Below the pieces are notes generated by a model. The model did not search any database, was not told the origin of the DNA, and saw only the letters and a list, made by a program, of their open reading frames with translations. 64,000 nt of DNA from the NCBI GenBank assembly GCA_028284285.1, contig JANQSA010000029.1, positions 1 to 64,000 on the forward strand. The letters are read 5' to 3'. This document shows positions 29,434-33,517 of the stretch, piece after piece; the first letter of the stretch is position 1; each line of letters starts with the position of its first letter. The translations under genes were made by a program, and so were the position numbers. This stretch comes from Croceivirga sp. (GTDB lineage: Bacteria; Bacteroidota; Bacteroidia; Flavobacteriales; Flavobacteriaceae).

Positions 29434-30189
29434 ATGAAAAAAACAATTCTCATTACTGGAGCTACAAGTGGTATTGGGAAAGCCACTGCAAAATCCTTTG
29501 CGGAAGATAGATTTCGACTGGTACTGTGCGGGCGTAGAGAGGCGCTTTTGGAAGCGTTAAAGCAGGAACTTTCCGCAAAAACCGAAATAGCTACTTTGAA
29601 TTTTGATGTCAGGGATCGGGATGAGGTGTTTCGGGCAATAGCTTCTTTGGAGCCTGAATTTTCAAAGATCGATGTGTTGGTGAACAATGCGGGAAACGCA
29701 CATGGTTTAGATCCTATACAAAACGGTAGTTTGGAAGATTGGGATGCCATGCTGGATATAAACGTTAAAGGGCTCCTTTACGTATCAAAAGCAGTCCTTC
29801 CGGGTATGGTAGAACGTAGATCAGGTCATATCATAAATATTGGTTCGCTGGCAGGAAAAGAGGTGTATCCCAGGGGCAATGTATATTGCGCCAGCAAACA
29901 TGCCGTAGATGCCATTACCCAGGGAATGCGAATAGATTTAAATGAGTTAGGCATCCGGGTTGGAGCGGTTAACCCGGGTTTAGTGGAAACCGAGTTCAGC
30001 AATGTACGGTTCAAAGGAGATGACCAACGTGCCAAAGCGGTATACCAGGGATATGCCCCTCTAAAAGCGGAGGATATTGCAGACATCATCTATTTTGTGG
30101 TAACCCGTCCTTATCATGTGAATATTGCGGACCTCTTAGTGCTACCTACGGCTCAAGCTAGTTCCTCAATAGTCAAGAAGGAATCATGA
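29434..30189 (+). CDS. Short-chain dehydrogenase/reductase (YdfG-like)
   Basis: 251 residues, classical SDR. The cofactor loop is TGATSGIGKATAKSF, the NNAG motif is VLVNNAGNAHG, and the catalytic Ser, Tyr and Lys lie in NIGSLAGKEVYPRGNVYCASKHA. The pattern fits serine or 3-hydroxy acid dehydrogenases of the YdfG group. Its stop overlaps the ATG of the AlbA-type gene (ATGA), so the two are coupled. Confidence 0.93.
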   Translation: MKKTILITGATSGIGKATAKSFAEDRFRLVLCGRREALLEALKQELSAKTEIATLNFDVRDRDEVFRAIASLEPEFSKIDVLVNNAGNAHGLDPIQNGSLEDWDAMLDINVKGLLYVSKAVLPGMVERRSGHIINIGSLAGKEVYPRGNVYCASKHAVDAITQGMRIDLNELGIRVGAVNPGLVETEFSNVRFKGDDQRAKAVYQGYAPLKAEDIADIIYFVVTRPYHVNIADLLVLPTAQASSSIVKKES

Positions 30190-31322
30190 TTAACAAACGT
30201 CTACTTGTCAAAAACCTTTTGGCCCACAACGATGAGAACAGTTTTTACGATAAGAAAAGGTTTATTTCCATTGGAGAGAAAGAAGGGAAGGCCAAGTTCT
30301 TAAAACATGTCTGTGCTCTGGCGAACAGCAACCCTAAAAATAACTCCTTCATTGTCGTAGGGGTAGAAGATGAGGATAACAAGATAGTTGGGGTAGATTT
30401 TTTTGACGATAGTAAGATTCAAAATCTGGTCAATGCGTATTTGGACAATCCTCCTTTAATTTCCTATGAAAACATTCCTTTCCCCCATCTTTCTGAAGGA
30501 AAAGTGGTTGGTTTGGTTACCATCAAGTCTAATGGCAAAGTCTGTGCATTGCGAAAAAATATCTGGAAGTATTATGGGGGTGCCGTCTTTTTTAGGGAAG
30601 GTAGTATAAGCCTTCCTAAAGCTTTTGATATTGAATTGAAAGACATCAATTCGGAAAAAGTAACTACTATTGAACATCATGCGCGAAACAATATTGAGCT
30701 AACGCTCGATGGGGTTATAGATTTTATTAACAACAGACATGCCGATTTGACCAGTAACTACAAGGTATTTAAAGAGCAGTTTGTAGTTTGCTGGGCGGGC
30801 AACACCAAAAAAGTTGGACAAAAAACCTATTATTCCAGAGTTGATATTGAACTTATAAACGAACAGGTTAAACTGTTTTATTCGACCTTGGATGAAGTCT
30901 CCATCCATCATGATGATGACACCTTCTCCACCCTGGAGTACGTACAATTAGGATTGGGAAAAGAGCAGAAGTATTTTCCGCTTGAAGAGGTGACGATAAC
31001 TTTCCTGGAGAACGGAAACTACCTTATAAACAGCGAATTGGTTTTTGAGCCACCGCAATATGATAGAAAGACCTTGCACCATATTCTTAACGTAAACAAC
31101 ACACTTTTAAATAAGTTGGAGAAGAAGATCACTTTAAAACCTGCTGAAAAAGCTGATCTGAAACACCTGCCGGATACCTACCTCATTTGTTATCTCAATG
31201 GGTTTGAGGAGGCCAAGGAGCAAATGGAACGCGCCCGGCCCATATTAAAACAAACGGATAGAAACATCTACCAGTCGTTAAAGCTGTCTCAAAGAATTCT
31301 TAGGAAGGTGCGCTACAATTAG
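30186..31322 (+). CDS. AlbA_2 / Schlafen-type putative DNA-binding protein
   Basis: 378 residues. The N-terminal domain (about 12-145) matches the AlbA_2 pattern: ENSFYDKKRFISI, KAKFLKHVCALANSNPKNNSFIVVGVEDEDNKIVGVD, LVNAYLDNPP and VVGLVTIKSNGKVCALRKN. The rest is an uncharacterised domain shared by flavobacterial relatives. AlbA_2 domains are called ATP- or nucleic-acid-binding, but function here is unknown. The gene ends RKVRYN, and its TAG stop is formed at the left edge of the MITE-like element. Confidence 0.85.
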   Translation: MINKRLLVKNLLAHNDENSFYDKKRFISIGEKEGKAKFLKHVCALANSNPKNNSFIVVGVEDEDNKIVGVDFFDDSKIQNLVNAYLDNPPLISYENIPFPHLSEGKVVGLVTIKSNGKVCALRKNIWKYYGGAVFFREGSISLPKAFDIELKDINSEKVTTIEHHARNNIELTLDGVIDFINNRHADLTSNYKVFKEQFVVCWAGNTKKVGQKTYYSRVDIELINEQVKLFYSTLDEVSIHHDDDTFSTLEYVQLGLGKEQKYFPLEEVTITFLENGNYLINSELVFEPPQYDRKTLHHILNVNNTLLNKLEKKITLKPAEKADLKHLPDTYLICYLNGFEEAKEQMERARPILKQTDRNIYQSLKLSQRILRKVRYN

Positions 31323-31594
31323 GGCCTGTTAACACTACCCCTAAAAGTGGCTTTCCTGCCTGCTCACCAGTGGCGGGTAAACCGGCAGGCAGGTTGACCC
31401 TTTTTCCGCATTTCTTCGTTCTTTTTTGGATACGTAGCCCGCTATGTTTACCAAAAAAACGCCTCGAAATCCGAAAAACCCGCCTGCCATACGGGCAGGA
31501 ATCATCAAAACCCGTCCGAACGGCAAGCCAGCCCGACAAGCGCTTCTGGCGGGGGTGGAAATCCATGATTTCCGTTTAATGTTAACAGGCCCTA
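31320..31594. mobile_element. MITE-like element with TA duplication
   Basis: Terminal inverted repeats GGGCCTGTTAACA (31322-31334) and TGTTAACAGGCCC (31580-31592) enclose 271 bases, flanked on both sides by TA (31320-31321 and 31593-31594). TA duplication is typical of IS630/Tc1-mariner-type insertion. The interior has GC-rich CCTGCC palindromes and no ORF that looks like a transposase. It provides the G of the TAG stops of both convergent flanking genes. Confidence 0.75.
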
Positions 31595-33517
31595 ATGCCA
31601 TTTTTTTAACCACAGAAACTGGTAGGGGGACAATTCCAAAAAGCCACTTCTTAATTCACTAACGGTATCTTCGATAAGATCGTGGAATTTTTGATCCCTT
31701 AGATAATCGAGTTTTGCCATCCAACTACTGTCTACTACCTGAGGATGTTCATCAAAATTACAGAGGACCAGGATACCAGTACCGGACTCAGCAGTTCTTT
31801 CATAAATTAGAATGTGCTCGTTTCCGGTTTGGTGAAGCCTGGTGTTTTCGTTATCCGCAAATACGGGGTTGGCTTTTCTGAGTGTAATCAAACGTTTTAT
31901 TCGGTTAAAGATTCGGGAATGAACCGAATCCTTTTCACCTAATGTCTTGATTAATTTCCAATCCTGTTGAGGCCGGTTCACCCATCGGTTGTCCGTTTTT
32001 TTTACTTCATCTTCCAAAAAGGTATAGTCATTTAATGTCCCTATTTCATCTCCTGCATAGATCAAAGGAATACCTCCAAATGAGAGTACAATGCTGTGTA
32101 GCATTAGTATTTTATTCTGGGATTGTTCCAACAATTCCTGGTCGTTGGTTTCCAGCGCTTTTTCCAACCCCAGCAGTGAAGCCGCACTTCCGGTAATGCG
32201 GCCATCTCCCGTTTTGGGGTTATACATAAAAAGGAGTCCTTTCGCCGGAGACCACCCTATACGTTGACAGTAATAGTCCAGCAGGAACTTCCTGTGGCCC
32301 TGTGGGTTCCAGCCCAACTCTTGTATGTGTTGGTCATCCAGGCCCAGTCCAATATCGTCATGGCATCGGATATAATTGATCCAGGTACATTCCCTGGGTT
32401 TTTTGGATTCATTGATCAAACTTTTGTACAGCAAAGCCGTTTTTTTGGTGGCAATGGAATTCCAAAGCAGGGCCATCAGAGAGGCATTGTACGCTATTTC
32501 ACATTCGTTCCCGGTTCGGATATCTTCACCAAAATATTTTACGATATCCCGGGGGGCCACAATAGCCTCAGCGAGTAAGATAGTGCTCGGCGCTACCACC
32601 TGCAAGCACATGCGGTATAGGAAAACGATGATGTGTGCCTCCTCCAGGTTTTGTGAGATCGTACCCATTTTTTTCCATAGGAAAGCCAGCGCATCAAAAC
32701 GCACCACATCCACTCCGAGATTGGACAGTTCTACCAGGTTGGTCAACATTTCCAAAAAGACCTCCGGGTTCGTATAGTTCAAATCCCATTGGTAATTATT
32801 GAAAGCGGTCATTACCCATTTATTCATTTCCGGCACATAGGTATAGTTCCCGGGGGCGGTTTTTGGGAAGACCTCCGGCAGGGTTTTTTCAAATTCCTCC
32901 GGGATGGTTCGGTCCGCGTAAGTATAATAGTAATTTTGGTATTTCTTTTCGCCCGCTTTTGCCTTCAGTGCCCATTTATGCTCATCAGAGGTGTGATTCA
33001 CCACAAAATCCAACATTAGATACATGTTTTTGCTGCGCATTAAAGCAGTAAGGGCATCCAAATCTTTTCGGGTTCCATATTTAGGGTCTATTTCCGTATG
33101 GCTGTTTACGGCATACCCTCCGTCGTTTTCGCCCTTTGGCCGTGTGGTAATAGGCATTAAATGCAGAAAATTAATACCTAACTGTTCCAGGTAGGAAATC
33201 TTGTTCCGGAGCCCTTTTAGATCTTTACTAAAGTGATCCACATATAATTGCATGCCAACCAATTGTTCCGAACGGTACCAGGCTTCAGTGTTAATTCTTT
33301 CGATATCCTGGGTTTTTAAATACCCAGGACGTTTTGAAAACAGCGCTTCAAGAAGCTGTAATAGATCCCGGAAAGCAGTATGGGCATCGGGATAGATCTT
33401 AAAAAAGGCCTCCTTGATAAGCGTTAGATTGGTAGCTAAACGCAGTTCAAAAAATGATTTTACGTCTTTATCTCCCTGCTTTGAGGCAAGTAATTTGTGC
33501 AAAACTGCCTGATTCAT
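31592..33517 (-). CDS. Amylosucrase (GH13)
   Basis: 641 residues, the length of Neisseria amylosucrase, including its helical N-terminal domain. It makes alpha-glucan from sucrose and releases fructose. The GH13 sites are visible: DFVVNHTSDEH, nucleophile Asp275 in VDVVRFDALAFLWKKMG, acid/base Glu317 in LLAEAIVAP and Asp387 in NYIRCHDDIG. The amylosucrase-type stretches LHLMPITTRPKGENDGGYAV and GRITGSAASL also match. No signal peptide, so sucrose must enter the cell. It lies 1 base after the fructokinase gene. Confidence 0.9.
   Translation of the reverse strand: MNQAVLHKLLASKQGDKDVKSFFELRLATNLTLIKEAFFKIYPDAHTAFRDLLQLLEALFSKRPGYLKTQDIERINTEAWYRSEQLVGMQLYVDHFSKDLKGLRNKISYLEQLGINFLHLMPITTRPKGENDGGYAVNSHTEIDPKYGTRKDLDALTALMRSKNMYLMLDFVVNHTSDEHKWALKAKAGEKKYQNYYYTYADRTIPEEFEKTLPEVFPKTAPGNYTYVPEMNKWVMTAFNNYQWDLNYTNPEVFLEMLTNLVELSNLGVDVVRFDALAFLWKKMGTISQNLEEAHIIVFLYRMCLQVVAPSTILLAEAIVAPRDIVKYFGEDIRTGNECEIAYNASLMALLWNSIATKKTALLYKSLINESKKPRECTWINYIRCHDDIGLGLDDQHIQELGWNPQGHRKFLLDYYCQRIGWSPAKGLLFMYNPKTGDGRITGSAASLLGLEKALETNDQELLEQSQNKILMLHSIVLSFGGIPLIYAGDEIGTLNDYTFLEDEVKKTDNRWVNRPQQDWKLIKTLGEKDSVHSRIFNRIKRLITLRKANPVFADNENTRLHQTGNEHILIYERTAESGTGILVLCNFDEHPQVVDSSWMAKLDYLRDQKFHDLIEDTVSELRSGFLELSPYQFLWLKKWH

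What the first reader, a model, noticed from the sequence alone, without database searches (positions are those of the whole stretch)
31320..31594. MITE-like element inserted exactly at the shared stop site of two convergent genes
Thirteen-base inverted repeats GGGCCTGTTAACA are flanked by TA on both sides. If one TA plus the element is removed, the join reads AATTAATG. The plus-strand gene would then stop at TAA right after AAT, and the minus-strand gene at TAA right after CAT. With the element in place, both genes still stop at once, now with TAG made of the TA plus the element's terminal G/C. The insertion is therefore neutral for both proteins and gives each a built-in TAG. An element whose ends begin TA-GGG carries its own stop codons in one frame on both edges.
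Basis: partly seen in the sequence, partly recalled or inferred. Interest (0 to 1): 0.7.

Follow-up and report, generated by a model that had tools for sequence, protein, structure and literature searches.

The report
IS5-type mini-transposon in shared stop codons
A short non-coding jumping DNA has landed in the two letters shared by the stop codons of two facing genes, and because its ends rebuild a stop codon on each side neither protein changed; such landings are commoner than chance among its relatives.

Summary
A 271-bp element (31322-31592) with 13-bp perfect inverted repeats sits between two TA copies. A same-genus genome, G008, has the exact empty site AATTAATGCC, and both proteins end at the same place there. 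TTAA in the empty site holds both convergent stops; the element splits it and supplies TAG to each gene. The family guess (IS630/Tc1) is wrong: the same ends bound six complete 819-836-bp elements in other phyla, all with an IS5-family transposase. The target is YTAR in 47 of 49 pairs, exactly the form a 4-bp convergent overlap must have. Of seven independent hairpin insertions in the genus, three sit on such a double stop, against 4 of 1046 tolerated YTAR sites (P about 2e-6). In other phyla 14 of 41 insertions end one neighbouring gene, against 3-5 expected, but none ends two. Collapsed relics of about 18-34 bp persist at some junctions and still carry stops. Element-borne stops (pneumococcal BOX) and target-supplied stops (ISPsp10) are in print, so this is a new member of a known kind with an unusually clean seat. 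Why double stops are enriched is open.

The parts
31320..31321 (.). left copy of the duplicated target TA; with G31322 it is the TAG stop of the left gene
   Evidence: empty site in L085
31322..31592 (.). 271-bp MITE, GGGCC...GGCCC, no gene assigned
31322..31334 (+). left terminal inverted repeat GGGCCTGTTAACA
31580..31592 (-). right terminal inverted repeat GGGCCTGTTAACA
31593..31594 (.). right copy of the target TA; with C31592 it is the TAG stop (minus strand) of the right gene
31355..31397 (.). approximately: nested 43-bp palindromic repeat absent from the C52 and G006/G008 copies
   Evidence: similar repeats at C82:253481, C19, C13, C37
31398..31478 (.). conserved hairpin core (98% identical to the G006 copy)
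   Evidence: alignment of 12 other copies
31479..31499 (.). nested 21-22-bp palindrome, at the same place in the C52 copy, absent from the G006/G008 copies
31511..31558 (.). approximately: nested 48-bp GC-rich repeat absent from the C52 copy
30186..31322 (+). left gene, SLFN_AlbA_2 + DUF5929 protein, 378 aa, stop supplied by the element edge
31592..33517 (-). right gene, alpha-amylase family protein, 641 aa, stop supplied by the element edge

Best explanation
The insert is a MITE: a non-autonomous element moved in the past by an IS5-family transposase (IS427-group type) that cuts YTAR targets and duplicates the central TA. When two convergent genes overlap by four bases, their stop codons are by necessity YTAR: TAR on one strand, TAR on the other, sharing TA. 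Insertion there turns Y-TA-R into Y-TAG...CTA-R, so both genes regain a stop at once and no residue changes (shown at the window site). Such landings survive because they cost nothing. Once in place the element supplies both stops, so later deletions tend to keep its edges, leaving TAG...CTA relics of about 18-34 bp (inferred). The excess at double stops over other tolerated YTAR sites is shown. I infer that it reflects survival (no promoter or spacer lost, edges locked in), not aiming by the transposase.
For: Empty site and unchanged C-termini at the window site. A second genus insertion with the same seat: filled in G006/G008, while five of seven other genomes with that gene show an unfilled shared stop there (G000 TTAA; G004, G005, G007 TTAG; G009 CTAG) and two (G001, G010) differ. 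A third at C52:34449. Same ends on six complete elements of 819-836 bp; NF033580 (IS5 family) is the best profile in all six, over its cut-off in five. YTAR in 47 of 49 pairs with at most 1 end mismatch, with no further target preference. Double-stop seats in 3 of 7 genus insertions and 3 of 12 judged insertions of the wider group, against 4 of 1046 tolerated YTAR sites (binomial P 1.9e-6 and 1.2e-5; Fisher 6.2e-6 and 3.8e-5). In convergent gaps alone, 3 of 6 against 4 of 217 (P 1.2e-4; Fisher 3.7e-4). Other phyla: 14 of 41 pairs end one neighbouring gene. Pooled rate 6.9% gives P 3.5e-7; per-locus rates (5.3 expected) give simulated P 2e-5, and their mean as one binomial rate P 4.2e-4. No two of the 41 share flanks.
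Against: No transposase with these ends was found in the own genome or genus: 2 of 11 genomes match NF033580, neither is G000, G005 alone is over the cut-off, and no end within 6 mismatches lies in either fetched locus. A transposase from a complete element found only distant matches (26-28% identity) in 2 of 395 relatives. In other phyla 0 of 41 pairs sit on a double stop, so that excess is seen only in the window's own group and rests on three events. For the C52 event no empty site could be seen: its left gene has no full orthologue in the other ten genomes. The survival argument is not tested directly. Genes were called by a simple ORF rule.
Confidence: 0.8

Rival explanations
1. Aimed insertion: the transposase, or a local state at convergent gene ends (supercoiling from facing polymerases, terminating ribosomes), directs insertion to the shared stop.
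For: The excess persists when only convergent gaps are compared (3 of 6 against 4 of 217). Single-stop seats are in excess in other phyla (14 of 41). At the nitroreductase junction an 18-bp relic is present in G000, G004, G005 and G007 but absent in G006/G008, which are closer to G000 in that protein (84-85% against 71-72%), and in G001 and G010; this allows two separate hits on one site.
Against: The target logo shows nothing beyond YTAR. 4 of 7 genus insertions are not on a stop. 0 of 41 double seats in other phyla. One gain plus one loss also explains the nitroreductase site.
Confidence: 0.15
2. Kept because useful: the long hairpin works as a two-way terminator or insulator between genes that overlap and so have no room for one.
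For: Hairpin conserved in 12 aligned copies (88% mean column identity), 54 consensus pairs, 10 with at least one two-sided change. One relic is itself a palindrome (28 bp in G004). The nitroreductase relic keeps 16-17 of 18 bases between clades whose third codon positions are about 48% identical.
Against: The scan found one terminator-like site on one strand, 0.8 expected by chance, and it lies in a nested repeat. The covariation term is not favourable (0.5). A hairpin is what any MITE with long arms has. The 18-bp relics have lost it.
Confidence: 0.2
3. Chance: an ordinary intergenic MITE that happened to hit a stop, with no real excess.
For: Only three independent double-stop events; simple gene caller; no double-stop seat among 41 pairs of other phyla.
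Against: P 1.9e-6 to 3.7e-4 depending on the null and test, and a separate excess of single-stop seats in other phyla.
Confidence: 0.07

Closest known systems
IS5 family, IS427 group, ISPsp10 (PMC4133298; passages seen)
   Same: IS5-family transposase in two frames, TA duplicated at insertion, stop codon of the transposase supplied by the target TA+A. The authors suggest such targets may be preferred.
   Different: ISPsp10 is a complete IS. There the target's stop serves the transposase; here the element's edges serve two host genes and the element has no transposase.
Pneumococcal BOX, RUP and SPRITE repeats (PMC3049150; passages seen)
   Same: Small non-autonomous repeats, over-represented between convergent genes. 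BOX repeats encode the stop codon at the extreme 3' end of 36 genes without strong evidence of truncation.
   Different: Other repeats; the passages liken RUP ends to IS630 and BOX ends to another IS. They do not describe insertion exactly in a YTAR stop shared by two genes.
IS5 of Escherichia coli (PMC10359306; passages seen)
   Same: Target motif YTAR.
   Different: An autonomous IS trapped inside cas genes, no link to stop codons stated in the passages. There YTAR is called the duplicated motif; here the duplication is written as TA.
MITEPsy1 of Pseudomonas syringae (PMC3189936; passages seen)
   Same: Short MITE listed as possibly IS5-derived.
   Different: Reported with a 4-nt duplication and 18-nt repeats; no stop-codon seat in the passages shown.
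IS630/Tc1-mariner MITEs (recalled)
   Same: TA target duplication.
   Different: The six complete elements found with these ends carry IS5-family transposases.

Membership tests
MITE | short non-coding element with terminal inverted repeats and target duplication | tested here: met
   empty site. ORFs of up to 90 aa across it are listed; they were not tested further
MITE | several copies at unrelated places | tested here: met
   7 independent hairpin insertions in 11 genus genomes; 13 with the wider group
IS5 family (IS427 group) | ends shared with a complete IS5-family element | tested here: met
   6 pairs of 819-836 bp with these ends, up to 3 end mismatches; NF033580 is the best match in both frames of all six, over its cut-off in L117, L119, L148, L150, L208 and below it in L195
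IS5 family (IS427 group) | transposase in two overlapping frames | tested here: met
   two frames in L117, L119, L148, L150 and L208; L195 is more broken. That this is common in the IS427 group is from PMC4133298; no model specific to the group was run
IS5 family (IS427 group) | TA duplication in a YTAR target | tested here: met
   47 of 49 pairs; empty sites
IS5 family (IS427 group) | mobilising transposase present in the same genome | tested here: not met
   no NF033580 match in G000, a draft of 82 contigs. Not required of a MITE, so it does not decide membership
IS5 family (IS427 group) | demonstrated mobilisation by that transposase | not testable with these tools
   needs a transposition assay
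IS630/Tc1 | TA target duplication | tested here: met
IS630/Tc1 | IS630-type transposase bounded by the same ends | tested here: not met
   no IS630 model among the NCBIfam hits of six complete elements; no separate IS630 search of genomes was made

The most novel reading that the evidence does not exclude
A transposon lineage that seeks the shared stop codons of convergent genes: insertion is directed to the TA where two genes end, either through a host state peculiar to facing transcription units or because the YTAR specificity of IS5-type transposases evolved to use stop codons as safe harbours, with the ends tuned (TA+G outward, TAG inward) so that genes meeting them in the right frame are closed properly.
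Probability: 0.15. Interest if true: 0.75.

Novelty: new member of a known kind. Interest (0 to 1): 0.42.

Why it matters
It shows in sequence how a mobile element can be exactly neutral in a genome that is about 91% coding by ORF calls: its target motif coincides with the only form a 4-bp convergent overlap can take, and its first base rebuilds the stop. It gives a testable case of a safe harbour defined by the genetic code, and would explain odd 18-bp stop-to-stop linkers as collapsed transposons. The same end sequence occurs in several phyla, so a large natural census is possible.

Tried and rejected
IS630/Tc1 parent: dropped after IS5-family transposases were found between the same ends. 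Extended target consensus as cause of the stop seats: none beyond YTAR. Ordinary two-way terminator: only a chance-level terminator match. RNA structure under selection: 10 of 54 pairs with two-sided changes but no favourable covariation term; left open. Autonomous partner in the genus: not found. An exact paired pattern over 397 family genomes gave one genome, G298; only three genus genomes were in that draw and the window copy is too long for its gap. Published sequence of these ends: 13 papers hold one of four 11-base strings; by the listing they concern other subjects and were not opened. Paper searches on IS or MITE with stop codons and convergent genes; nothing seen in listings or opened passages on insertion in a YTAR stop shared by two genes. 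I opened five papers, for passages only.

Rows dropped: my notes first counted eight genus insertions; a recount gives seven (G006 and G008 share one) and the statistics were rerun. Of 13 insertions in the wider group, L118 has only 91 bp of left flank and was not judged (12 judged: 3 double, 1 single, 8 none). Five further loci (L266, L267, L268, L285, L286) gave no pair or a doubtful one and were left out. In some searches some relatives were first printed at the wrong gene end; one search reprinted all in the right orientation.

Full report
What is there. Between two convergent genes, an SLFN_AlbA_2/DUF5929 protein (30186-31322, +) and an alpha-amylase family protein (31592-33517, -), lies a 271-bp insert with exact 13-bp inverted ends GGGCCTGTTAACA, flanked by TA on both sides. 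Each gene stops at TAG made of TA plus the first base of the element.

Empty site. The left gene has orthologues in all 11 genus genomes. Window and G008 proteins end at the same place. TTAA there is the 4-bp overlap of the two genes, holding both stops. No tool names the organism. Flavobacteriaceae is my inference from related copies in records titled Maribacter (L118, L149).

Copies. The own genome has a 186-bp copy at C52:34449-34634. G006 and G008 share a 164-bp copy at one orthologous place. G005 has two copies, G007 one, and G008 a further one. With the window this makes 7 independent insertions in 11 genomes. Six more come from G298, G210, G172 (two) and two Maribacter contigs. An alignment of 12 copies (11 insertions), without the window and C52 copies, shows a conserved hairpin of about 164 bp. 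The window copy is longer because small GC-rich palindromes are nested in it. One of these, of 21-22 bp, is at the same place in the C52 copy, so one of the two was probably derived from the other, or both from a copy that already held it.

Parent. They hold 56 paired ends: 46 are 48-323 bp long (19 of them 269 or 270), six are 819-836 bp, and four (329, 508, 792, 1384 bp) are odd, three of these with 3-4 end mismatches. In all six of 819-836 bp both reading frames match the IS5-family model NF033580 best; five reach its cut-off in one frame or both, L195 does not. L150 also matches Pfam DUF4096 and DDE_Tnp_1. In L119, L148, L150 and L208 the transposase frame stops at the inner TAG of the end. 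In L115, at a contig edge, 24 codons of a transposase-like frame run through the end, so the stop would be TA plus the target's next base. PMC4133298 reports the same for ISPsp10 of the IS427 group (passage).

Target. Of 49 pairs with at most one end mismatch, 47 read YTAR across the joined flanks (CTAG 20, CTAA 11, TTAG 10, TTAA 6); two do not. No position further out carries much information in 48 pairs. YTAR is the published IS5 motif (PMC10359306, passage). By the genetic code a 4-bp convergent overlap must be YTAR, so this target covers every such overlap.

Are stop seats in excess? In 400 kb of the own genome plus the window (element masked), 1046 YTAR sites can be hit without breaking a called gene; 122 are one gene's stop and 4 are two genes' stop. 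Of the 7 genus insertions, 3 sit on double stops (window, C52, G006/G008), none on a single stop and 4 elsewhere. P is 1.9e-6, or 6.2e-6 by Fisher. With the wider group it is 3 double and 1 single of 12 judged, P for the doubles 1.2e-5. Restricting to convergent gaps, which favour any insert, leaves 3 of 6 against 4 of 217, P 1.2e-4. In other phyla, 41 of 49 pairs had at least 600 bp of flank on both sides: 14 end one gene at the element's TAG, none ends two, and 27 end none. Expected are 2.8 from the pooled site rate or 5.3 from per-locus rates; P lies between 3.5e-7 and 4.2e-4 by method. No two of the 41 share flanks. The 41 include three complete elements (L117, L150, L208).

The seat in relatives. 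At the G006/G008 site, seven other genus genomes have the left gene; five show an unfilled shared stop (TTAA, TTAG or CTAG) and two differ. For C52 no full orthologue of the left gene was found in the other ten genomes, so its empty site is unseen.

Relics. A 19-base search with up to 3 mismatches gave 35 sites in 11 genomes against 18 for the reversed control, so weak hits may be chance. I looked at 12 single-end rows at six loci. At the nitroreductase junction (G000, G004, G005, G007) and the L080/L066 junction (G005, G007) both genes stop inside 18 bp, TAG...CTA. At a third (G007 L059, G004 L056) one gene stops at the relic and the other just beyond. One locus has one stop, two have none. 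G010 and G001 show the nitroreductase site empty, CCTAGTCC and CCTAATC; G006 and G008 also lack the relic. Of 67 single ends in the broad scan, 39 lie near an edge and were set aside; in 12 of the other 28 a called gene ends at a YTA within 60 bp inside the end, four at 18 bp and three at 33 bp. I have no null for that count, and some of the 28 are plainly ends of complete elements whose other end was not recognised. Collapse between short repeats such as CTA or GGCCCT would give these forms; this is inference.

Reading. The identity, target and neutrality are well supported. The excess at stops is real by these tests but rests on three double-stop events in one group and on ORF-based gene calls. 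Survival without cost is the simplest cause; aimed insertion and use as a terminator are not excluded.

Noticed in passing
31355-31397, 31479-31499, about 31511-31558: Three small GC-rich palindromic repeats are nested in the MITE; similar ones stand alone at G000 C82:253481, C19:43035, C13:128078 and C37:53902 and in G006 and G008. A strict pattern found only 3 in 464 kb, one of them the nested one.
   Followed up: partly
L060, L077, L075, L063 (nitroreductase junction): An 18-bp TAG...CTA linker is all that separates two convergent genes in four species and keeps 16-17 of 18 bases between clades whose third codon positions are about 48% identical: conserved, or gained twice.
   Followed up: partly
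L056:1501-1528: A 28-bp palindrome, perfect but for its outermost base pair, stands at a convergent junction in G004, apparently a MITE reduced to two abutting ends.
   Followed up: partly
L115:1-75: At the edge of a Flavobacteriaceae contig an IS5-like transposase frame runs through the end without a stop, so the target's TAR would close it, as reported for ISPsp10.
   Followed up: partly
L120, L158, L207: Elements of only 48-63 bp keep both full ends and little else; whether these are mobile or collapsed in place is unknown.
   Followed up: no
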